Source: Chitinophagales bacterium
Lineage (GTDB): Bacteria > Bacteroidota > Bacteroidia > Chitinophagales > S012-47
Length of the DNA: 58,931 nt
NCBI GenBank assembly: GCA_015487695.1
Contig: WFPF01000135.1
Location: forward strand, 1-58,931
Reading direction: 5' to 3'
The notes below the pieces were generated by a model. It was given only the letters and a program-made list of their open reading frames with translations. It made no database searches and was not told the DNA's origin. The stretch's first letter is position 1. Each line of letters starts with the position of its first letter. Shown here piece by piece: positions 21,616 to 43,074 of the stretch. A program made the translations under genes and the position numbers.

Positions 21616-24600
21616 ATGAGCCGACTAAATATACTCCTGCTGGCAGCTATTTCCACACTCTGCCTTTATCCCCTGCATGGACAGCAGTATCTGGAGATGA
21701 TACAAAATGCCAATGATCAAACCCGCTTTGAGGATATCCGGGAAGCGGCAGAACTGTATTTCAGTACCCACGACAAAGGAAAGGGCAGCGGATACAAGCA
21801 ATACAAGCGCTGGGAGGAGCATATACGTTTTCGCCTGGACGATGACGGAACGCTCACAAATTACAGTGCGCGGATATTTGAGGAAGGCGTGAAAGCCGGA
21901 CGGGTCCGCCTCGGAAGCGGAAACACGGCCCTGCCGGGAAATCAAAATCCATCGGCCGGAAACAACTGTGCGGGAGATACATGGACGGAACTGGGGCCCA
22001 GCGCCTATGTCAATGGCAACTACGGTTACAATCCGGGCCTCGGCAGGGTCAATGTGATCGCCTTCGACCCGGAAGACAGCAATGTGATTTATCTGGGTGC
22101 TCCGGCCGGAAGTCTCTGGAAAACCATCAACGGAGGCAACACCTGGACTCCGCTGACCGATCAACTTTCGAGCATCGGAGTGTCGGGTATAGCTATTGAT
22201 CCCGATGATGGAAACCATATTTTTATTTTGACCGGTGACGGTGACGGAGGCGATACCTATTCCATCGGAGTGATGGAGTCAATGGATGGCGGACTTAGCT
22301 GGAATACAAGCAATTTTTCCTATTCACAAAGTCAGGTGAAGAGGGGATATAAACTGATCATGTACCCCGGGCATCCCGATACCATGTTTGCCGTGATGCG
22401 TGACGGGATATACAGAACCTTCGATGCCTGGCAGAGTTGGACCCGTGTTCAGGGAGGCAACTTCAGAGACCTGGAATTCAATCCGGATAATCCGCAAATT
22501 GTATATGCCAGCACCACAAGAGATTTTTATCGCTCGGTAAACGGTGGCAGCACATGGGCCATCATCCCCGATGCCCTCGTATCTGCTACAAACCGAATTG
22601 AGATCGGTGTTTCGGAAGATGAACCTTCTTTCGTCTATCTCATCTCGGGGCCCTCCACCGGCAACGGACAGTTCACGGGTATTTCGCGCTCGGTAGACAA
22701 TGGACTTACTTTCACTTCGGCCATGAATACCCCGAATATTCTGGGTTATTCACCCAGCGGGTCGGACGGCAGTTCCCAGTCATGGTACGACCTGGCCATA
22801 GCCGTATCTCCATTGGATGCTTCCACGGTCATCACCGGTGGGGTTAATGTCTGGAAATCAACGGATAGCTGCAACAGCGCTACCGTACGCTCTTACTGGG
22901 TGGACCCTTCGGGCTATGAATACACTCATGCCGACATCCACGAACTGGTTTTCAACCCGCTCGACAATAAACTCTATTGCGGAAGCGATGGGGGAATATT
23001 TGTCAGCTCCGATTATGGGGACACCTGGACCAATATCAGTGACGGGATTGTCATTACACAGTTTTACCGCATTGCCAGTTCCGAGAAGCGCCCGAATGTA
23101 ATCATCGGAGGTGCTCAGGACAACGGGTCAAATAAATGGGTGGGCAATGACACCATCGTGCATATTTACGGAGCAGACGGAATGGACTGTATGGTCGATC
23201 ATACTTTTCCCGATACGATATATTTTTCGTCCCAGGGCGGGGGACTGCGCAAGTCGCTGAACGGGGGATTTACCAGTGTCAGTATTCGACCAACCAATGG
23301 TCCCTGGGTGACGCCCTATGCCATGCATCCCGACAGCTCAAATATTTTGTACGGGGGCTGGAACGATCTGTACCGCTCGGATGACGGAGGGCTGTCATGG
23401 GTCAATACCGGAATGCCTTGCAACCGGGCCATTGCCATTGCCGAGAGCAATCCGGACATCATCTATACAGCCAGTGGCAGTTCGGTCTACCGCTCCACTG
23501 ACGGGGGAACGACTTTTGTCAATGTTTCCCAGGGATTGCCCGGGCGAACCATTGCAGGATTGACCGTAAATCCGAAAGACCCCGATGAAATATGGACCTG
23601 CTACGGTGGATTCTCCGCTTCACAAAAAGTTTTCAGATCACTGAACGGAGGCAATACCTGGGCCAACCTCTCGAGCGGTGTGCCCAATGTGCCCGTTAAT
23701 GCCATCCGTATGGTCGATCACTTCAAAAACGGGGGATTGACGGGAGCCGTGTACATCGGAACCGACCTTGGCATGTATTACCGGGATGACTATACTGCCT
23801 GGACCTGTGCCAGCAACGACCTGCCCAATGTGCCGGTATTCGACATTGAATTCAATTACGGCAACAATAAAATCCGTGTGGGCACCTTTGGCAGAGGCAT
23901 CTGGGAGAGCAGCATCATCACTTCCGTGGAAGCCATATGCAAGGATGCCATAAAATACCTGGATGAAAACGGCAGGGTGATAGTGACTGCTTCGGATGTG
24001 GACAGTGCATCCCATTCTCCGCTCGGCATCGACACGATGTATGTGACCCCGGATACCTTTTATTGCTCAGATAAGGGAGAAAATACAGTCATACTCACAG
24101 TCATTGATCTGGCCGGACACATGGACCAATGTGAATCGGAAGTCACGATTCTGGATACGAGCGCTCCCAAAGCCCGATGTCAGCCACTGCAGCTTTATCT
24201 CGATAGCAGCGGCAATGCTTCCCTATCGGCATCTCAGATCAACATGGGCTCGTCAGACAATTGCGGAATCAGTGAGATGTGGGTTGAACCCAATCATTTT
24301 AGCTGCGAAGACCCTGATACGGTCTGGGTGCAACTGCTGGTGCAGGACGAAAGCGAAAACCGTGATACTTGCGAAACCTATGTGCTGCTGACAGACAGCA
24401 TCAGGCCCTGGCTGACCTGTGCCGATACGACTTTGTATCTGGATGAAGCGGGGCAGGCGGAAATCAGCCCCCCGGGGCTGATCGAAAGACCTGTCGGACA
24501 TGATACCTTCTTTTTTATTGGACAAACGGCCACCTGGACCGTGCCTGCAGGAGTTGACAGCATTACGATCGAACTCTTTGGAGCAGGAGGAGGCGATGGA

Positions 24601-27333
24601 GCCCAGGGGGCGCTTGGCGGAAAAGGCGGCTGGGTGAAAGCCCGTATTCCGGTAGCTCCTGACGATACATTCTATATTCGGGCCGGTGGTGCCGGAAGCA
24701 GTTGTCATAACTGTCCTTCCGGAGGCTTCAATGGTGGAGGAGGTACAGAAGTGCTTAATACCTCATACACAGCCGGCACCGGTGGCGGTGCCAGCGACAT
24801 CAGGCTGAATGATACAGTGCTGAGTGCACGCATTGCCGTGGCCGGTGGTGGAGGCGGGGGCGGTTTTGTCACCGCTGAAGCTTCAGGTGGAGATGGTGGC
24901 GGACTGCTGGGCGCAGATGGAGGTTCATGGAGTGGTTATCCGCCCGGCAAAGGCGGAAGCCAGAATGCAGGAGGATCTGGCGGAAGTGGCGCTGCCTACG
25001 GACAAAGCAATGCCGGAGATGGCTCGCTCGGCTTCGGAGGCCGGGGCAAAGGACTGACAGGTGGCGGTGGTGGTGGCGGTGCCGGATATTACGGAGGCGG
25101 GGGTGGTTTCGTTGCCGGAGCTGGCGGTGGCAGCAGCTATACCGCTTCAATGGCCTCGAATGTGGAGCATCTGCAGGGAGTGAAGGAAGGCAACGGCCTC
25201 GTGATTATCCACTGGAGATCCCACGGAAGTTTTGGCGACAATTGCGAGGTGGATTCGCTTTCAGCTTCCCGCACCATATTTACAACGGAAGACCTGGGTG
25301 TCAATGAAGTCATCGTAGGCATTGTGGATGTCAATGGCCTGCAGAACACGTGTGTGTCGCTGGTGACCATACTTGATACGGTCTCGCCCGATATCAGCTG
25401 TCATAATACCGTGCTTTATCTGGATGAACAGGGTTGGGCACTATTGCAGGCTGACAGTGTTCTGGAATCAGTATCTGATGCCGGAGGAGTTGATTCCCTC
25501 TGGGTGCTTCCTGATACCTTTAACTGTGAAAATATCGGAAGCAACGAAGTACAGCTTTATGCACGTGACAGCAGCGGCAATATTTCTCATTGTACTGCGC
25601 TTGTCGAAGTCCTCGACACGGTAGCCCCGGTGGCGGTCTTACGCTCCGACACATTTTATCTCGATGCAAATGGACATGTATCTCTCGAAGCCGACTCCTT
25701 TTACAGCTTCCTGACCGAAGCCTGCGGAATGGATACCGTTACCATTGACCCTTCTGAATTTGGCTGCGAGGACACGGGATGGCATGGGCTGAATTTGCGT
25801 TTTGTCGACAGGTCAGGGAATGTCAGTGAATACACAAGCAGCGTTTATGTCATCGACAGTACGGCTCCCATAGCCCGTTGCAGGCATGCCGTTTTGTATC
25901 TCAACGAATCGGGAATAGCCATTCTTGAGGCGGAAATGATTGATGACGGATCGGAGGATGCCTGTGGCATTCAGTCGCTTAGCGTAAGCAGGGATACTTT
26001 TGGCTGTGACGAGATACGTACACCTCTGGTCGAATTAACGGTGACCGATCGAAATGGAAATACGGCAAGCTGCCTTGCCGAAGTGCAGGTGAAGGATACC
26101 CTTCCGCCCGTTCTGCATTGTCGCAATGCCGAGCTATATCTCAATGAGGAAGGAATCGCCATCCTGAGTACAGAGGATGTGATTGAAAGCATGGAAGACA
26201 ACTGTGGAATTGCTTCCGTAATTATTTCAAGAGATACTTTTAATTGTGCCGATATCGGTGAAAACGAGGTGCACATTTTGGTAACGGATATAAATGGGAA
26301 ACAGAGCGATTGCGCAGCTGTGGTCATTGTTCGCGACAGCAGCGCTCCATTGCTTGTTTGCCATGATACTACGGTCTACCTGAATGCTGACGGAGTAGTG
26401 GAAGTCAATGCAGAGGCACTCATGACAGCCTCGGACAATTGCGAAGTATTTACAATCCATACGGGCCGTACCCGTTTTACCTGCGATGATACGGGCGTAC
26501 AGGAATTGTTGATCGAAGCGGAAGATCCCTCAGGAAACAGCAGCACTTGCGTTTCGCACATAACCGTAACGGACAGCACCTCTCCCATGGCCCGTTGTGA
26601 AGATGTTGATTTATACCTGAACGAGGACGGTGTTGCAGAGCTGGAAGCCTCGCAGGTGGATGCCGGATCGGAAGATGCTTGTGGAATTCAGTCACTGGAG
26701 ATGGATCACAGGCGCTTCAGCTGCAGCGATCTGGGTGAAAGTTTAATCACCCTCTATGTAGTCGACAGCAATGGTAATAAAAGCAGTTGCCAATCCCGGC
26801 TGCGTGTCATTGACACAGTACCTCCCGTAGCCCGTTGTCACGACACATTCGTAACACTTGATGAAGCGGGTCACGCGGTCGTAACTGCAGAAATGATTGA
26901 CAACGGCTCGGAGGATGCGTGCGGCATCGACAGCATGTGGGTGATTCCTTCCGCATTCGGACCCGGGGACATTGGCGAGCAGACCGTGGTCTTGCATGTA
27001 CGCGACAGCAGCGGAAATATTGCAGAGTGCGAGGCAATTGTAGTAGTCCGGCCCTTCCCGGTGGGCATTGCATCCCATGGCGGTGCAGCTTCCCTGCATC
27101 TCTATCCCAATCCTTTTGAACAGGTGTTTGTTCTTGAACTTAGCAACCCCGGAAGGGGAGAAGTGTCATGGGAAATATTTGACCTTCTTGGCAGGAGGGT
27201 GGCCGGTGAAAATGAAGGAAGTCCGGCCGCTTTGAAACGCCAAATCGATCTGAAGGACCGGGCAGCCGGGTCTTACTTTATTCGTATCCGCATAGGAGAA
27301 GAGTTGCTGGTAAGGAAGCTGATCCGGATGTAA
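21616..27333 (+). CDS. Giant modular T9SS-secreted protein: Asp-box propeller, HYR-like repeats, inserted glycine-rich domain
   Basis: A 1905-aa secreted protein. Residues 1-23 are a signal peptide. Residues ~110-765 form a sortilin/BNR-type beta-propeller with about nine Asp-box motifs (for example KTINGGNTW, RSVNGGSTW, RSTDGGTTF, RSLNGGNTW). Residues ~771-1811 hold ten ~80-residue HYR-like repeats, each with LYLxxxGxAxL, DxCGI, FxCxDxG and DxxGNxxxC. A ~250-residue glycine-rich domain (~958-1205) is inserted inside the third repeat. The last ~75 residues (LYPNPFEQVFVLELSN to RKLIRM) are a type A T9SS sorting domain. It probably acts at the cell surface as an adhesin or scaffold; no catalytic motif is seen. 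It stands alone between leuS and the convergent SET gene (three-base gap). Confidence 0.9.
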   Translation: MSRLNILLLAAISTLCLYPLHGQQYLEMIQNANDQTRFEDIREAAELYFSTHDKGKGSGYKQYKRWEEHIRFRLDDDGTLTNYSARIFEEGVKAGRVRLGSGNTALPGNQNPSAGNNCAGDTWTELGPSAYVNGNYGYNPGLGRVNVIAFDPEDSNVIYLGAPAGSLWKTINGGNTWTPLTDQLSSIGVSGIAIDPDDGNHIFILTGDGDGGDTYSIGVMESMDGGLSWNTSNFSYSQSQVKRGYKLIMYPGHPDTMFAVMRDGIYRTFDAWQSWTRVQGGNFRDLEFNPDNPQIVYASTTRDFYRSVNGGSTWAIIPDALVSATNRIEIGVSEDEPSFVYLISGPSTGNGQFTGISRSVDNGLTFTSAMNTPNILGYSPSGSDGSSQSWYDLAIAVSPLDASTVITGGVNVWKSTDSCNSATVRSYWVDPSGYEYTHADIHELVFNPLDNKLYCGSDGGIFVSSDYGDTWTNISDGIVITQFYRIASSEKRPNVIIGGAQDNGSNKWVGNDTIVHIYGADGMDCMVDHTFPDTIYFSSQGGGLRKSLNGGFTSVSIRPTNGPWVTPYAMHPDSSNILYGGWNDLYRSDDGGLSWVNTGMPCNRAIAIAESNPDIIYTASGSSVYRSTDGGTTFVNVSQGLPGRTIAGLTVNPKDPDEIWTCYGGFSASQKVFRSLNGGNTWANLSSGVPNVPVNAIRMVDHFKNGGLTGAVYIGTDLGMYYRDDYTAWTCASNDLPNVPVFDIEFNYGNNKIRVGTFGRGIWESSIITSVEAICKDAIKYLDENGRVIVTASDVDSASHSPLGIDTMYVTPDTFYCSDKGENTVILTVIDLAGHMDQCESEVTILDTSAPKARCQPLQLYLDSSGNASLSASQINMGSSDNCGISEMWVEPNHFSCEDPDTVWVQLLVQDESENRDTCETYVLLTDSIRPWLTCADTTLYLDEAGQAEISPPGLIERPVGHDTFFFIGQTATWTVPAGVDSITIELFGAGGGDGAQGALGGKGGWVKARIPVAPDDTFYIRAGGAGSSCHNCPSGGFNGGGGTEVLNTSYTAGTGGGASDIRLNDTVLSARIAVAGGGGGGGFVTAEASGGDGGGLLGADGGSWSGYPPGKGGSQNAGGSGGSGAAYGQSNAGDGSLGFGGRGKGLTGGGGGGGAGYYGGGGGFVAGAGGGSSYTASMASNVEHLQGVKEGNGLVIIHWRSHGSFGDNCEVDSLSASRTIFTTEDLGVNEVIVGIVDVNGLQNTCVSLVTILDTVSPDISCHNTVLYLDEQGWALLQADSVLESVSDAGGVDSLWVLPDTFNCENIGSNEVQLYARDSSGNISHCTALVEVLDTVAPVAVLRSDTFYLDANGHVSLEADSFYSFLTEACGMDTVTIDPSEFGCEDTGWHGLNLRFVDRSGNVSEYTSSVYVIDSTAPIARCRHAVLYLNESGIAILEAEMIDDGSEDACGIQSLSVSRDTFGCDEIRTPLVELTVTDRNGNTASCLAEVQVKDTLPPVLHCRNAELYLNEEGIAILSTEDVIESMEDNCGIASVIISRDTFNCADIGENEVHILVTDINGKQSDCAAVVIVRDSSAPLLVCHDTTVYLNADGVVEVNAEALMTASDNCEVFTIHTGRTRFTCDDTGVQELLIEAEDPSGNSSTCVSHITVTDSTSPMARCEDVDLYLNEDGVAELEASQVDAGSEDACGIQSLEMDHRRFSCSDLGESLITLYVVDSNGNKSSCQSRLRVIDTVPPVARCHDTFVTLDEAGHAVVTAEMIDNGSEDACGIDSMWVIPSAFGPGDIGEQTVVLHVRDSSGNIAECEAIVVVRPFPVGIASHGGAASLHLYPNPFEQVFVLELSNPGRGEVSWEIFDLLGRRVAGENEGSPAALKRQIDLKDRAAGSYFIRIRIGEELLVRKLIRM
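23926..27054 (+). repeat. Ten tandem HYR-like protein repeats (coding)
   Basis: Ten degenerate units of about 240 bases each (the third much longer because of the insert) encode Ig-like beta-sandwiches. Linkers read D-T/S-x-x-P-x-A-R-C. Paired cysteines (DxCGI, FxCxD, NxxxC) recur in most units; unit 5 lacks the final cysteine of the pattern (VSEYTSS) and unit 10 has FGPGDIG in place of FxCxDIG. The divergence between units argues for old duplications rather than recent slippage. Confidence 0.85.
24487..25230 (+). other. Glycine-rich domain inserted within HYR-like repeat 3
   Basis: Encodes roughly residues 958-1205 of the giant protein. It starts with FFFIGQTATWTVPAGVDSIT and IELFGAGGGDG and contains many GGG runs (AVAGGGGGGGFV, GGGGGGGAGYYGGGGGF), resembling the glycine-rich domain of Pfam Gly_rich, also found in ALK-type receptors. 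The HYR-like unit begins before it (LYLDEAGQAEISPPGLIE) and resumes after it (SFGDNCEVDSL, then GVNEVIVGIVDVNG), so the domain sits in a loop of that unit. Confidence 0.75.
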
Positions 27334-37393: not shown

Positions 37394-40246
37394 ATGAAAA
37401 AAAGATTACTCGTTTCTTCCCTCACTCTGATACTGGCAGTGTCAGGGTTTTATTATTTCAATACGGGGCTGCAGCAGCCTGCAGATAACGAACGTTTTGT
37501 GCTGATGGATGCTCCGGAAGGAGTCGCTGTTTTGCAAAAAGCGGAAAAGAAAAACAAAGAAGGCATTGATTATTGGGCGGACTTTTCATTGAAAGCACGA
37601 GCCAATCAGTTTACACATGATATTGACCCGAAGGATGTGTATGAAGCCAGAAAAGCACATTACGAACTGATCAGGAGAGTTGCTCAGCAACGATCATCAA
37701 GCCTCAATATCGATTTTGATTTCATGGGCCCCAGCAACAAGGGTGGCCGTACGCGGGATTTGCTTTATGACCGCAACAACACCAAGAGAGTATATACCGG
37801 AGGGGTTTCGGGAGGACTCTACATCTCCAATGACGGGGGTTCTACATGGGAGCCATACTGGGGGAATGATACCCTGGCCGGAGTAAGTATCGTTTCGCTG
37901 ACACAGGCAGCCAATGGTGACATATATGTCGGCACAGGTGAATTCGTGAGTACGGGCTTTTCTCAGGGTACCGGGCGTTCAAGAAGCTTTATCGGTCAGG
38001 GAATCTGGAAATCAAGCGATGGAGGAAACACTTTCCATCAGCTGAAAGCCACTGCTCCGGTACCAAGTACCTCATCGGCTACCTTTGCATTCGTAGCCGA
38101 ACTCGAAGCGCACCCGAGCGATCCCAATGTCATCCTTGCCGGGACGGCCAAAGGGCTGAAAATAACATATGACGGAGGAGCCAGCTGGGAAGAAGCCAGC
38201 ACAGCACTCGGATTGAGAAACAAAGACATCCAGGACCTGGAAGTAACGGCTTCGGGCAAGGTTCATTTAACAGCCGGTGGCAAGTATTGGCATGGAAATA
38301 TCGATGACAAGACTTCTTATCAGGAGGTGAATGTAGGCAGCAGCTTTAAGGATGCAAAAATTGCCACGGCTCCTTCCGATGAAAATTACGTATACCTTAT
38401 CGGATGCAATGGTGGTGGAGAAACAGCCGGTCTGTACCGCTCTATTGACGGAGGAAACACATGGCGAAACATCGGGCCGAGTACCATGCCGGCTGCTTCA
38501 TTTAACCCGACCGGTACACAGGGCGACTATGATATGGAGATAGCGGTACATCCGGCCAATAAAGACATTGCATATGTTGCCGGTCAGTTTTCGGTTTACG
38601 AGTACAATTACTCCGAAGAGAACGGACAAGCCAAAGATTTCTGGTGGCCCATCAGCAACTGGTGGAGCGGTTCATCTGCTTTTGATCCGCACTATGTTCA
38701 TGCCGACCATCACCGCTTCGTTTTCCATCCGAATAATCCGGATGTAATGATTGTTTGTACGGATGGTGGTTTGTTTCGAACCAATGAGGCTTCCAAAAAA
38801 TATCCGAATCCGCCTGACTTTGAACAAATCAATAACGGCTACGGGGTGGCTCAGTTTAACAACATTGCCGTCAACCTGAAAGGCCACATCATCGGTGGAA
38901 CCCAGGACAACGGGGTCATGATTATCAACTTTAACGGAAATTCGACTACCCAGGCATTTCGTGCAAGTGGATTCGGTGATGGCGGATATGTCGAAGCATC
39001 CAAATTGAATGACCAGGCCTTCTTCGGCTCGTCCTATTTTGGAATTTTGGCACGTTCATCCAATGGCGGAGATGGGTTCTCCAGTTTCTATGACAATCAT
39101 ATTGATGGCAATGGAGACCGCCTTCCGGATGCCGGAGCACCCTTTGTTCCCGTAAGTCATTTGTATGAATTTACGGATATGAACAACCCCAACTACGGGA
39201 AAGGCCTTTTCCTGTGGACCCCGTTTGATGGGGTGTGGGCGGCATTTGATGCTTTGAACTTCGGCTCTATACCGACCTGGTTTCATATCGCAGGATCAGC
39301 CAATGGACTGCCATCAGCTGCAGAGTATACGGCTATGAACATCTCCGAAGATGGCAACCATCTCTTTGTGGGTACGTCAAGCGGTCGCGTTTATCGCATA
39401 TCCGGACTGAAAGATGTGGAATGGAAATACAATGACAACGGTACTCCAACCAATCCGGATGACGACTTCTTCGATCCGACTGCAGAGGGCATCACAACCC
39501 AATTGATTGGCAACTTCAGCAGTCGCTTTGTGAGTGATATTGCAGTGGATAAAAACAATCCTGAGCACGTTGTCGTGGCATTGGGTAATTATGGCAATAG
39601 CCATTACGTGTATCGATCTACAAATGCCGTATCTACTAATAATGCAAATTCATTCTCCAGCATTCAGAATAATTTGCCGAAGATGCCTGTATATAGTGTG
39701 GTGATTGACAGATATGACAGCAAGAATATCATCGTGGGTACTGAATTGGGTGTCTACGCATCCAACCTGAATGGCAGTAATTGGCAGCCTGAGTTCAACG
39801 GATTGCCTACCACACCGGTATTGACATTGAATCAGGAGTTGGTCTATGATCTTAATGGTGATTGCTATATCCTTTATGCCGGAACCTATGGCAAGGGAAG
39901 CTATGCATCGGCATCACTTTCGCCCTCGGGATGCCAGATTCCGAAAGGGAACTTCAGCACCGGGACAGGCAATCCGATTGCAAAACTTAACGGAGAGCTT
40001 AGCTTATTCCCGAATCCTGCATCGGATCAGTTGAACATCCGATTTACTCTGACAAAACAAAGTGATGCGCAGCTCCTGATTTATGACATGTCAGGCAAAG
40101 TTGTTGAAGATCGCTACCTGGGCTTGCTCACGGCTGGTGAGCAGCAGCAGGGCCTCACGGTAACATCGTTGAAAAACGGACAATACATTGTGGTGCTGCG
40201 AACAGACGACAGCCAACTGGTTAAAAAACTGTCCGTATTGCATTAA
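37394..40246 (+). CDS. T9SS-secreted Asp-box (sortilin/BNR-like) propeller protein
   Basis: A 950-aa secreted protein. Residues 1-24 form a signal anchor or signal peptide (KKRLLVSSLTLILAVSGFYY). A propeller follows, with Asp-box motifs such as ISNDGGSTW, KSSDGGNTF, ITYDGGASW and RSIDGGNTW and blade phrases PSNKGGRTRDLLYD and AHPSDPNVILAGTAKG. The final ~75 residues (LFPNPASDQLNIRFTL to KKLSVLH) are a type A T9SS sorting domain. Its propeller is related in style to that of the 1905-aa protein at 21616, but it has no HYR-like repeats. It probably binds or processes a surface glycan or protein; no catalytic residue can be named. It has its own promoter box and a strong terminator, so is monocistronic. 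Confidence 0.9.
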   Translation: MKKRLLVSSLTLILAVSGFYYFNTGLQQPADNERFVLMDAPEGVAVLQKAEKKNKEGIDYWADFSLKARANQFTHDIDPKDVYEARKAHYELIRRVAQQRSSSLNIDFDFMGPSNKGGRTRDLLYDRNNTKRVYTGGVSGGLYISNDGGSTWEPYWGNDTLAGVSIVSLTQAANGDIYVGTGEFVSTGFSQGTGRSRSFIGQGIWKSSDGGNTFHQLKATAPVPSTSSATFAFVAELEAHPSDPNVILAGTAKGLKITYDGGASWEEASTALGLRNKDIQDLEVTASGKVHLTAGGKYWHGNIDDKTSYQEVNVGSSFKDAKIATAPSDENYVYLIGCNGGGETAGLYRSIDGGNTWRNIGPSTMPAASFNPTGTQGDYDMEIAVHPANKDIAYVAGQFSVYEYNYSEENGQAKDFWWPISNWWSGSSAFDPHYVHADHHRFVFHPNNPDVMIVCTDGGLFRTNEASKKYPNPPDFEQINNGYGVAQFNNIAVNLKGHIIGGTQDNGVMIINFNGNSTTQAFRASGFGDGGYVEASKLNDQAFFGSSYFGILARSSNGGDGFSSFYDNHIDGNGDRLPDAGAPFVPVSHLYEFTDMNNPNYGKGLFLWTPFDGVWAAFDALNFGSIPTWFHIAGSANGLPSAAEYTAMNISEDGNHLFVGTSSGRVYRISGLKDVEWKYNDNGTPTNPDDDFFDPTAEGITTQLIGNFSSRFVSDIAVDKNNPEHVVVALGNYGNSHYVYRSTNAVSTNNANSFSSIQNNLPKMPVYSVVIDRYDSKNIIVGTELGVYASNLNGSNWQPEFNGLPTTPVLTLNQELVYDLNGDCYILYAGTYGKGSYASASLSPSGCQIPKGNFSTGTGNPIAKLNGELSLFPNPASDQLNIRFTLTKQSDAQLLIYDMSGKVVEDRYLGLLTAGEQQQGLTVTSLKNGQYIVVLRTDDSQLVKKLSVLH

Positions 40247-41073: not shown

Positions 41074-43074
41074 TTAGCGTGCAATAACCAGTTTGCTTGT
41101 GGAAACTCCCAGCTTATTTTTAATCTGTATCGTGTACATTCCGGGTGCAAAATCACTTACATCAATATTTTCCAGAATATTATTGGTGTTGCGGTAATTT
41201 ATCGTTCGAATAACCTGTCCTGAAATATTTGTAATCACTACCTGATAGTTTGAAGTTACTTTACTTTCAACTTTCAACTGGAATTGATCACTTGCTGGAT
41301 TTGGATGAATCGATACATTGCCTACTTCCAATTTATCTATTCCAGTAGGTTTACCAAAGATGACGCGAATCCATACGGCCTCACCATCGGTATACCACTG
41401 TCCGTCAGGATAGTAGTAGTAGATACTGGCAAATGCGCCCTGATCTGAAACGCGGTCGTCCAGCATGGTGATCACATTGGCTCCGTCATTACTAAACATA
41501 CTGACAGATACATAGTACATGTTAGGCATTAATACACGATCCTGAACGGCCCCGCCAGTGAGTACTTCCGGAATTGGAATTTCGGCATAACCGCGGGCTG
41601 TATCGGCATCCGTAATTCGGTAAGGCTCGGATTTCAATACTACGTTGGTCCAGTCGCCACCCAGATTGGCATCGAATGCGGTTCCGAAAGTAGGTGTGGT
41701 ATCTTTAATTTCAATAAAGACATCGCCACCGGGAATGGTTGAAGGACCGAGATAAATGCGAACAGCCGTTACCGTATCGGCATTTTTGATGTGCATTACG
41801 TTGGCAAAGCGGGCTCCGTCTCGTGCCGCACCGAATCCGTCAGCGTAATCAGATCCGATCTCGCGGCTGGCGTAACCGTTGTCCACGGCATAAACAGTAT
41901 TCGTAATCATCAGTGTATTATCCGGGCTGACAGAGTCAACAGAAGGACGCACACCGGCCGGGTCGAAGTCGCTGGCACTGTCTGAAATAGCGGCCAGAGC
42001 ATACATGTATTCGGTAAACATATCGGCTGAAGAAAGGTCGATCATATTGTTGGTAATACGGAATGAGTCAGCTGCCAGCGTAATAGTTTGAGAAAGATTG
42101 CTGAAACTTGAGCTGCTGCTGTAAACATAGAATTTCGAACCGGCATTGCTTTGATCGTAAACGCCCTGGTTCAGAAGGCCGGCCAAAGCGTAAGCAGCCG
42201 GGTCCTGCTCAATAGGAATCTGACCGTAAGAAACCGTTACTGGTCCGTTGAAGTCAACCGAGCTGATGGCATAGTCGGCCAGTACGAGGTCATTCTTGGG
42301 TTTGGCAATCAGGCGGATGTCATCCACCATCCAGTAATAATATCCGTCAAATGCGGCAACACGGCCACTTGGCTGCCATGAAAATTTCAGAACAACTTGG
42401 TTTGAACCTCCGGCAATCGATGATATGTTAAGCGAAACAAAATCATCAAATGCTGATCCTTCATTAGGGTTGTAGAAGTCGCGGGCATCATATACCGTTG
42501 TATATGTGGCTCCACCGTCAGCGGATACTTCCAGTGAAGGGATGGCTGAGAAATGACGAACTGCCTGATACCATTCGAGCAGGATGTCATTGTAACCCGA
42601 GCAATCAATCGGATCGGTGATAAGATAAGACTCGTGCGGTACCGGTACGAGGCCCGATCCGGAGGCTCCGCCACAGGTAGCACCCGGGTCGTCATACCAG
42701 TTTGAATCGAATAGCACAAAGCCATTGGCCTGAGTGGCAGACTCAAGAGGCGCAAAGCTGGAGCAGGACCCTCTGGAACCTACGGTAATATCAGGAGTCG
42801 TATTCGGTCCGCGGTATTCCCAAACGGCCGTATCCGTTCCGTTGACAGTACCGGTATTGGACCATGTGGCAGGAATGCCGGCAGAAAAGTCTTCGCCCCA
42901 AATGACCGTGATGGCTTCACCATCTTCGGCAGGTGCTTTGGCTTTTGCATAAGCGGAATGTCTCACGACATTTTCTTTACTGGGTTTTTGATTGATCTGT
43001 CCTATTTGATCCGCCTGCCCGAAAAAAGGCATAGAGACCAAAACAGCAACAGCGAGTAGTAAGATTCTTCTCAT
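41074..43074 (-). CDS. T9SS-secreted modular protein with MAM/jelly-roll-like domain
   Basis: A 666-aa secreted protein. Residues 1-20 are a signal peptide (MRRILLLAVAVLVSMPFFGQ). Residues ~60-265 look like a concanavalin/MAM-type jelly roll (WGEDFSAGIPATWSNTG, FDSNWYDDPGA, SADGGATYTTVYDARDF, YYYWMVDDIRLI). A middle region (~270-560) holds further beta-domains of no recognised family. The last ~75 residues (SIHPNPASDQFQLKVES to SKLVIAR) are a type A T9SS sorting domain. It is probably surface attached or released. Upstream is a TAAATTTG box with a 42-base leader. It is a single-gene unit ending at a strong terminator. Confidence 0.88.
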   Translation of the reverse strand: MRRILLLAVAVLVSMPFFGQADQIGQINQKPSKENVVRHSAYAKAKAPAEDGEAITVIWGEDFSAGIPATWSNTGTVNGTDTAVWEYRGPNTTPDITVGSRGSCSSFAPLESATQANGFVLFDSNWYDDPGATCGGASGSGLVPVPHESYLITDPIDCSGYNDILLEWYQAVRHFSAIPSLEVSADGGATYTTVYDARDFYNPNEGSAFDDFVSLNISSIAGGSNQVVLKFSWQPSGRVAAFDGYYYWMVDDIRLIAKPKNDLVLADYAISSVDFNGPVTVSYGQIPIEQDPAAYALAGLLNQGVYDQSNAGSKFYVYSSSSSFSNLSQTITLAADSFRITNNMIDLSSADMFTEYMYALAAISDSASDFDPAGVRPSVDSVSPDNTLMITNTVYAVDNGYASREIGSDYADGFGAARDGARFANVMHIKNADTVTAVRIYLGPSTIPGGDVFIEIKDTTPTFGTAFDANLGGDWTNVVLKSEPYRITDADTARGYAEIPIPEVLTGGAVQDRVLMPNMYYVSVSMFSNDGANVITMLDDRVSDQGAFASIYYYYPDGQWYTDGEAVWIRVIFGKPTGIDKLEVGNVSIHPNPASDQFQLKVESKVTSNYQVVITNISGQVIRTINYRNTNNILENIDVSDFAPGMYTIQIKNKLGVSTSKLVIAR

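What the first reader, a model, noticed from the sequence alone, without database searches (positions are those of the whole stretch)
21616..27333. Glycine-rich domain nested inside one HYR-like repeat of a 1905-aa T9SS protein
Of ten ~80-residue repeats, the third is split: it starts as LYLDEAGQAEISPPGLIE, is interrupted by ~250 residues of Gly_rich-like sequence, then continues as SFGDNCEVDSL and onward. The flanking propeller, repeats and sorting domain are intact. This looks like a domain inserted into a loop of a beta-sandwich, not an end-to-end fusion, and could create a flexible or self-assembling module on a surface stalk.
Basis: partly seen in the sequence, partly recalled or inferred. 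Interest (0 to 1): 0.6.

Follow-up and report, generated by a model that had tools for sequence, protein, structure and literature searches.

The report
ALK-type glycine domain inside bacterial sandwich
A bacterial cell-surface protein carries, spliced into a loop of one of its repeated stalk domains, a rigid glycine-rich domain related to the hormone-binding part of the animal cancer receptor ALK, and bacteria of this group have placed that domain in the same loop more than once, which points to a reusable binding module.

Summary
ORF 21616-27333 (1905 aa) has ten ~80-residue HYR-like repeats. The third (934-1260) is interrupted by 247 residues (958-1204, 32% Gly). Excising them restores an 80-residue repeat scoring 75.7 bits full length against the other nine, where the split halves score 10.6 and 46.8.

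The insert is not a loose Gly-rich region. It hits Pfam ALK_LTK_GRD (PF12810, E 8e-23), folds in AlphaFold2 at pLDDT 95 / pTM 0.91, and its best PDB matches are the TNF-like + polyglycine module of LTK/ALK, then phage tail fibres. So "flexible" is not supported, and "self-assembling" was not tested.

The nesting recurs. In a 173-domain survey 25 lie inside HYR domains, all in the loop at the conserved D-N-C; others lie near the end of Ig_7 domains. In proteins holding both, 23 copies are nested, 1 is end-to-end with a complete HYR, 6 lie elsewhere. One clade of the window's copy with canonical HYR-nested copies is rejected (AU p 1e-4), so the loop was entered, or its guest replaced, more than once.

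Best reading: a rigid ligand-binding head held sideways on a T9SS surface stalk. Ligand unknown.

The parts
21616..21681 (+). signal peptide (residues 1-22, by eye)
   Evidence: hydrophobic N-terminus MSRLNILLLAAISTLCLYPLHG in the translation; inferred, no predictor run
22042..23934 (+). Sortilin/BNR-type propeller region, residues about 143-773
   Evidence: Pfam PF15902 E 1.3e-17; paralogues in the genome match 143-773
23938..24414 (+). HYR-like repeats R1-R2, residues 775-933
   Evidence: repeat alignment
24415..24486 (+). first piece of repeat R3 (934-957), with C935
   Evidence: 10.6 bits, columns 2-18 of the repeat HMM
24487..25227 (+). insert: ALK/LTK-type glycine-rich (TNF-like + polyglycine) domain, residues 958-1204
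   Evidence: Pfam PF12810 E 7.9e-23; AF2 pLDDT 94.7, pTM 0.91; Foldseek to LTK/ALK
25228..25395 (+). second piece of repeat R3 (1205-1260), with the D-N-C motif and C1246
   Evidence: 46.8 bits, columns 26-78 of the repeat HMM; joined with the first piece 75.7 bits
25396..27060 (+). HYR-like repeats R4-R10, residues 1261-1815
   Evidence: repeat alignment; Pfam HYR on R10
27100..27324 (+). T9SS C-terminal sorting domain, residues 1829-1903
   Evidence: Pfam PF18962 E 2.5e-10; TIGR04183 above its cut-off

Best explanation
A rigid, independently folding ALK/LTK-type module (TNF-like jelly roll carrying a bundle of polyglycine-II helices) has been inserted into the D-N-C loop of one HYR-like sandwich of a T9SS-exported, cell-surface, propeller-plus-repeat protein. 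The two ends of the module are neighbouring jelly-roll strands (inferred from the fold), so it can sit in a host loop without breaking the host fold. The host repeat stays whole, probably stapled by a C935-C1246 disulphide, and the module projects sideways from the stalk as a ligand-binding head for a polymer or protein of a host, prey or the surroundings. Shown: the nesting in sequence, the fold class, the recurrence at one loop, and more than one history. Inferred: the disulphide, the sideways display and the binding function.
For: Excision restores an exact 80-aa repeat. PF12810 match. High-confidence fold and LTK/ALK and phage-fibre structural matches. 25 HYR-nested copies with the junction always at the DNC loop. 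Pfam HYR and Ig_7 hits across the junction after excision. 23 nested against 1 end-to-end in HYR proteins. Window copy groups with N-terminal and Ig_7-nested copies, and one clade with canonical HYR-nested copies is rejected. [quoted passage not shown]
Against: No ligand or binding data of any kind. Host sandwich modelled at low confidence. TM-scores to ALK/LTK only about 0.5 with rmsd near 9 A. Sequence searches of the PDB found nothing. No second genome carries the same whole protein, so conservation of this particular protein is not shown.
Confidence: 0.6

Rival explanations
1. The insert is a structural spacer or rigid kink with no ligand of its own: it thickens or bends the repeat array, or protects it from proteases.
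For: Rigid predicted fold in a repeat stalk; found in proteins of quite different kinds, such as an M36 peptidase and a protein with HYR repeats after a trypsin-like domain, which fits a general structural part.
Against: Closest solved relatives are ligand or receptor binders (PMC9608196); many copies sit at the very N- or C-terminus, where a spacer has nothing to space.
Confidence: 0.2
2. The glycine-rich segment is a flexible or self-assembling (silk- or condensate-like) element.
For: 32% glycine with long Gly runs; PMC13243192 raises the idea that glycine-rich PPII bundles may take up other Gly-rich segments.
Against: pLDDT 92-98 across the domain and pTM 0.91; conserved non-glycine positions such as D-R, Y-Y and the strand residues; match to solved globular domains.
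Confidence: 0.06
3. It is an ordinary separate domain between two repeats, and the split is an accident of how the repeats are drawn.
For: HYR flanks are modelled at low confidence; one homologue, L133, has the domain next to a complete HYR.
Against: The left piece is 24 residues and covers only columns 2-18 of the repeat; the same split at one loop in 25 cases; excised flanks score as full HYR in Pfam.
Confidence: 0.03

Closest known systems
ALK/LTK glycine-rich (TG) domain, Pfam PF12810; PDB 7nx1, 7n00, 7lrz, 7lir
   Same: Sequence family (82 bits, cut-off 24.5) and fold class (Foldseek E 1.7e-8, probability 1.00): TNF-like strands plus a glycine bundle
   Different: Bacterial, secreted by T9SS, no transmembrane helix, kinase or EGF-like domain found in the protein by Pfam; nested inside a HYR repeat; TM about 0.5, so the internal arrangement may differ
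[quoted passage not shown] Bxb1 tail tip, 9d93)
   Same: Same fold class by Foldseek; PMC9608196 already notes the likeness of gp24 to ALK
   Different: Trimeric fibre with a chaperone in Pam3; terminal, not nested in a sandwich repeat
HYR (PF02494) and Ig_7 (PF19081) repeats of Bacteroidota surface proteins
   Same: Host domains; excised flanks score as full HYR or Ig_7
   Different: Here interrupted by a 230-270 residue guest at one fixed loop of each
Domain insertion (A1-B-A2) architectures, surveyed in PMC13114784
   Same: One domain interrupts another; that survey reports insertions in 20% of multidomain proteins
   Different: HYR, glycine-rich, TNF and immunoglobulin do not occur in its main text; recurrent entry of one guest into one loop of stalk repeats is what is added here

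Membership tests
ALK/LTK glycine-rich domain (PF12810) | Sequence match above the curated cut-off over most of the model | tested here: met
   82.1 bits against 24.5, profile 12-241 of 243
ALK/LTK glycine-rich domain (PF12810) | Fold: TNF-like jelly roll with polyglycine bundle | tested here: met
   Foldseek of the pLDDT 94.7 model: LTK 7nx1 E 1.7e-8, ALK entries next; TM about 0.5. Individual polyglycine-II helices were not measured
ALK-family receptor | Transmembrane helix and tyrosine kinase domain | tested here: not met
   Pfam finds propeller, HYR and sorting domain only
ALK-family receptor | Binds an ALKAL-type cytokine | not testable with these tools
   No binding data; no reason to expect this ligand in bacteria
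Nested (A1-B-A2) insertion in one sandwich | Two pieces join to one complete host domain in sequence | tested here: met
   75.7 bits joined against 10.6 and 46.8 apart; exact 80-aa length
Nested (A1-B-A2) insertion in one sandwich | Both host pieces packed in one sandwich in three dimensions | tested here: inconclusive
   Host pLDDT about 45-80 in the model of 854-1340; coordinates not at hand
HYR repeat (PF02494) | Profile match of the host repeat | tested here: inconclusive
   Only R10 is reported as HYR by Pfam; excised R3 gives no Pfam hit at E 0.01 but matches its nine sister repeats
T9SS cargo | C-terminal type A sorting domain | tested here: met
   PF18962 E 2.5e-10; TIGR04183 36 bits, cut-off 23
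Receptor-binding adhesin head (Pam3 gp24-like) | Binds a surface receptor through the tip of the glycine bundle | not testable with these tools
   Fold class shared; no binding data

The most novel reading that the evidence does not exclude
Bacteroidota use the ALK-type TNF-like/polyglycine module as a plug-in recognition head with preferred sockets, the D-N-C loop of HYR and a loop near the end of Ig_7 sandwiches. The sockets have been filled repeatedly and independently, so that a stalk protein can gain or swap a binding head without disturbing the stalk.
Probability: 0.4. Interest if true: 0.7.

Novelty: new variant of a known kind. Interest (0 to 1): 0.5.

Why it matters
It gives a bacterial, stand-alone form of the ALK cytokine-binding fold in a defined and repeated structural setting. 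One guest domain has entered the same loop of a stalk repeat more than once, so that loop may be a natural insertion socket, useful for reading adhesin evolution and for displaying domains on stalks. It also shows a blind spot of annotation: Pfam reports the guest and intact repeats but not the split repeat.

Tried and rejected
phmmer of the insert against PDB sequences gave nothing, probably through composition bias; the fold search did find ALK/LTK. Viral contigs: 600 pattern hits, none confirmed by tblastn, although the structure search finds phage relatives. Adding the window's insert-free repeats to the AF2 alignment failed because MAFFT laid them into the insert or stacked them on one repeat, so they were dropped; this is one reason for the low host confidence. 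An Ig_7 HMM of my own could not be trained; Pfam on excised sequences was used instead. Recent DNA insertion: no shared word over 7 bases at the two borders, and third-codon GC of the insert is 0.48 against 0.53-0.59 in the rest, not decisive. Empty site in a congener: the G001 contigs end inside both neighbouring genes, so presence or absence cannot be judged. AU test of the window with L025 and L039 as one clade: not rejected (p 0.09), so independence is claimed only against the canonical group. The E. coli region was fetched needlessly and not used.

Full report
Observation. The ORF at 21616-27333 is intact and encodes 1905 aa. Pfam finds a Sortilin/BNR propeller, HYR, an ALK_LTK_GRD domain and a T9SS sorting domain. 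Ten repeats lie between 775 and 1815. R3 (934-1260) holds a 247-residue insert, 958-1204, 32% glycine. Cutting it out leaves exactly 80 residues, which score 75.7 bits over columns 2-78 of an HMM built from the other nine repeats; uncut, the two pieces score 10.6 and 46.8 bits. The finding is real and its coordinates are right. Cys 935 and 1246 lie on either side of the insert at positions that co-vary over 119 repeats (80 both, 8 neither, 31 one only; Fisher p 4e-4, not corrected for relatedness). A disulphide joining the two host pieces is inferred.

What the insert is. It matches PF12810, the ALK/LTK glycine-rich domain, at 82.1 bits (cut-off 24.5), and is the only one found in the genome. 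AlphaFold2 on residues 958-1206 with 55 relatives gives pLDDT 94.7 and pTM 0.91; in the longer model of 854-1340 the domain has pLDDT 92-98 while its HYR neighbours have about 45-80. Foldseek against the PDB gives the LTK TG domain 7nx1 (E 1.7e-8) and a run of ALK structures, then the Bxb1 tail tip and the Pam3 fibre. Global TM-scores are about 0.5 with rmsd 8-10 A, so the fold class is well supported but the internal arrangement need not be identical. Against viral models TM reaches 0.75. This speaks strongly against a flexible segment.

Recurrence. In the loci at hand, 173 complete domains of this family were found. Removing the domain and scoring the joined flanks against an HMM of uninterrupted canonical HYR repeats identified 21 nested cases, 20 of them with a hit over columns 1 or 4 to 71 (the last is cut short by the end of its locus), and the junction fell at columns 31-35, just after the conserved D-N-C, wherever both pieces aligned. 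L144 (Pontibacter burrus) adds another, 61.7 bits across the junction. The window, L025 and L039 have the junction just before that motif; L025 fell under my score rule and is counted on its weak hit (19 bits joined against 16 for the better piece) and by eye. Named hosts include Ulvibacter litoralis DSM 16195 (L114), Aequorivita soesokkakensis (L148) and Psychroserpens jangbogonensis (L113). Pfam confirms HYR across the junction in excised L114 and L148 at 60 and 58 bits. A second socket is Ig_7 (PF19081): 15 of 15 excised cases hit it, 12 with the best stretch reaching beyond the junction, the guest sitting near the end of the domain. Other copies are near the N-terminus (37) or the C-terminus (18). 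In proteins with at least one clear HYR domain, 23 copies are nested, 1 is next to a complete HYR and 6 lie elsewhere. The genome scan was seeded with an alignment that included nested cases, so these numbers are not an unbiased frequency. The class-wide PF12810 search chose loci by score alone, and 11 of its 29 newly fetched loci are HYR-nested.

Origins. In trees of 158 and 53 domains the window's copy sits in a clade of four (SH-aLRT 97-98) with two N-terminal copies (L071, L079) and an Ig_7-nested one (L017), not with other HYR-nested copies. A clade of the window with all canonical HYR-nested copies is rejected (AU p 1e-4), as is one with the core canonical group (p 4e-5). A clade of the window with L025 and L039 is not rejected (p 0.09). 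The trees are quick searches, the groups were not fixed before the first tree was seen, and replacement of the guest in an existing nest would look the same as a new insertion. What is shown is more than one history for the same loop.

Mechanism. [quoted passage not shown] In ALK and LTK the same region is seen in complex with the cytokine (entries named). A TNF-like fold has neighbouring end strands (general knowledge), which would explain how it fits a loop. The best reading is a rigid binding head held sideways on the stalk. Ligand and geometry are inferred. The protein as a whole reads as a T9SS surface protein of unknown substrate.

Novelty. PF12810 occurs by name in one held paper only, on a fungus; no held paper combines HYR domain, glycine-rich and Bacteroidetes; a 2026 survey of domain insertions does not name these families. 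Subscription journals are mostly not held, so priority is not established. I file it as a new variant of a known kind: known guest, known host, recurrent nesting not found described.

Taxonomy. This is inference.

Noticed in passing
window 37394-40246 and 41074-43074: Two further T9SS-sorted proteins in the same window; the first (950 aa) is a propeller paralogue of the protein studied.
   Followed up: partly
L116 (3751 onward) and L117: A Flavobacteriales MAG (M30B41) carries 4-5 copies of the glycine-rich domain in one protein, alternating with Cys-rich 'CNYDDTAEVDDGSC' repeats.
   Followed up: no
L088, L089, L097, L123: Rumen and gut Bacteroidales proteins hold up to six such domains each, mostly preceded by Ig_7-like sequence, and their copies end in an extra segment '..AGNxSMPxPxGGxETGHxGNGYARI' that the Flavobacteriales-type copies lack.
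   Followed up: no
L150, L153, L155, L094, L129, L134, L145: Relatives of the domain outside Bacteroidota: Nannocystis, Leucobacter luti, Bacilli MAGs and an Eremiobacterota MAG, often at the C-terminus.
   Followed up: no
L148 and L175: HYR-nested copies occur in secreted peptidases: an M36 fungalysin in Aequorivita soesokkakensis and, by eye, a trypsin-like protease in G129.
   Followed up: partly
G001 contigs C19 and C146: The congener's assembly breaks inside both neighbours of this gene (leucyl-tRNA synthetase and the acyl-CoA synthetase), so the site is unresolved there.
   Followed up: yes
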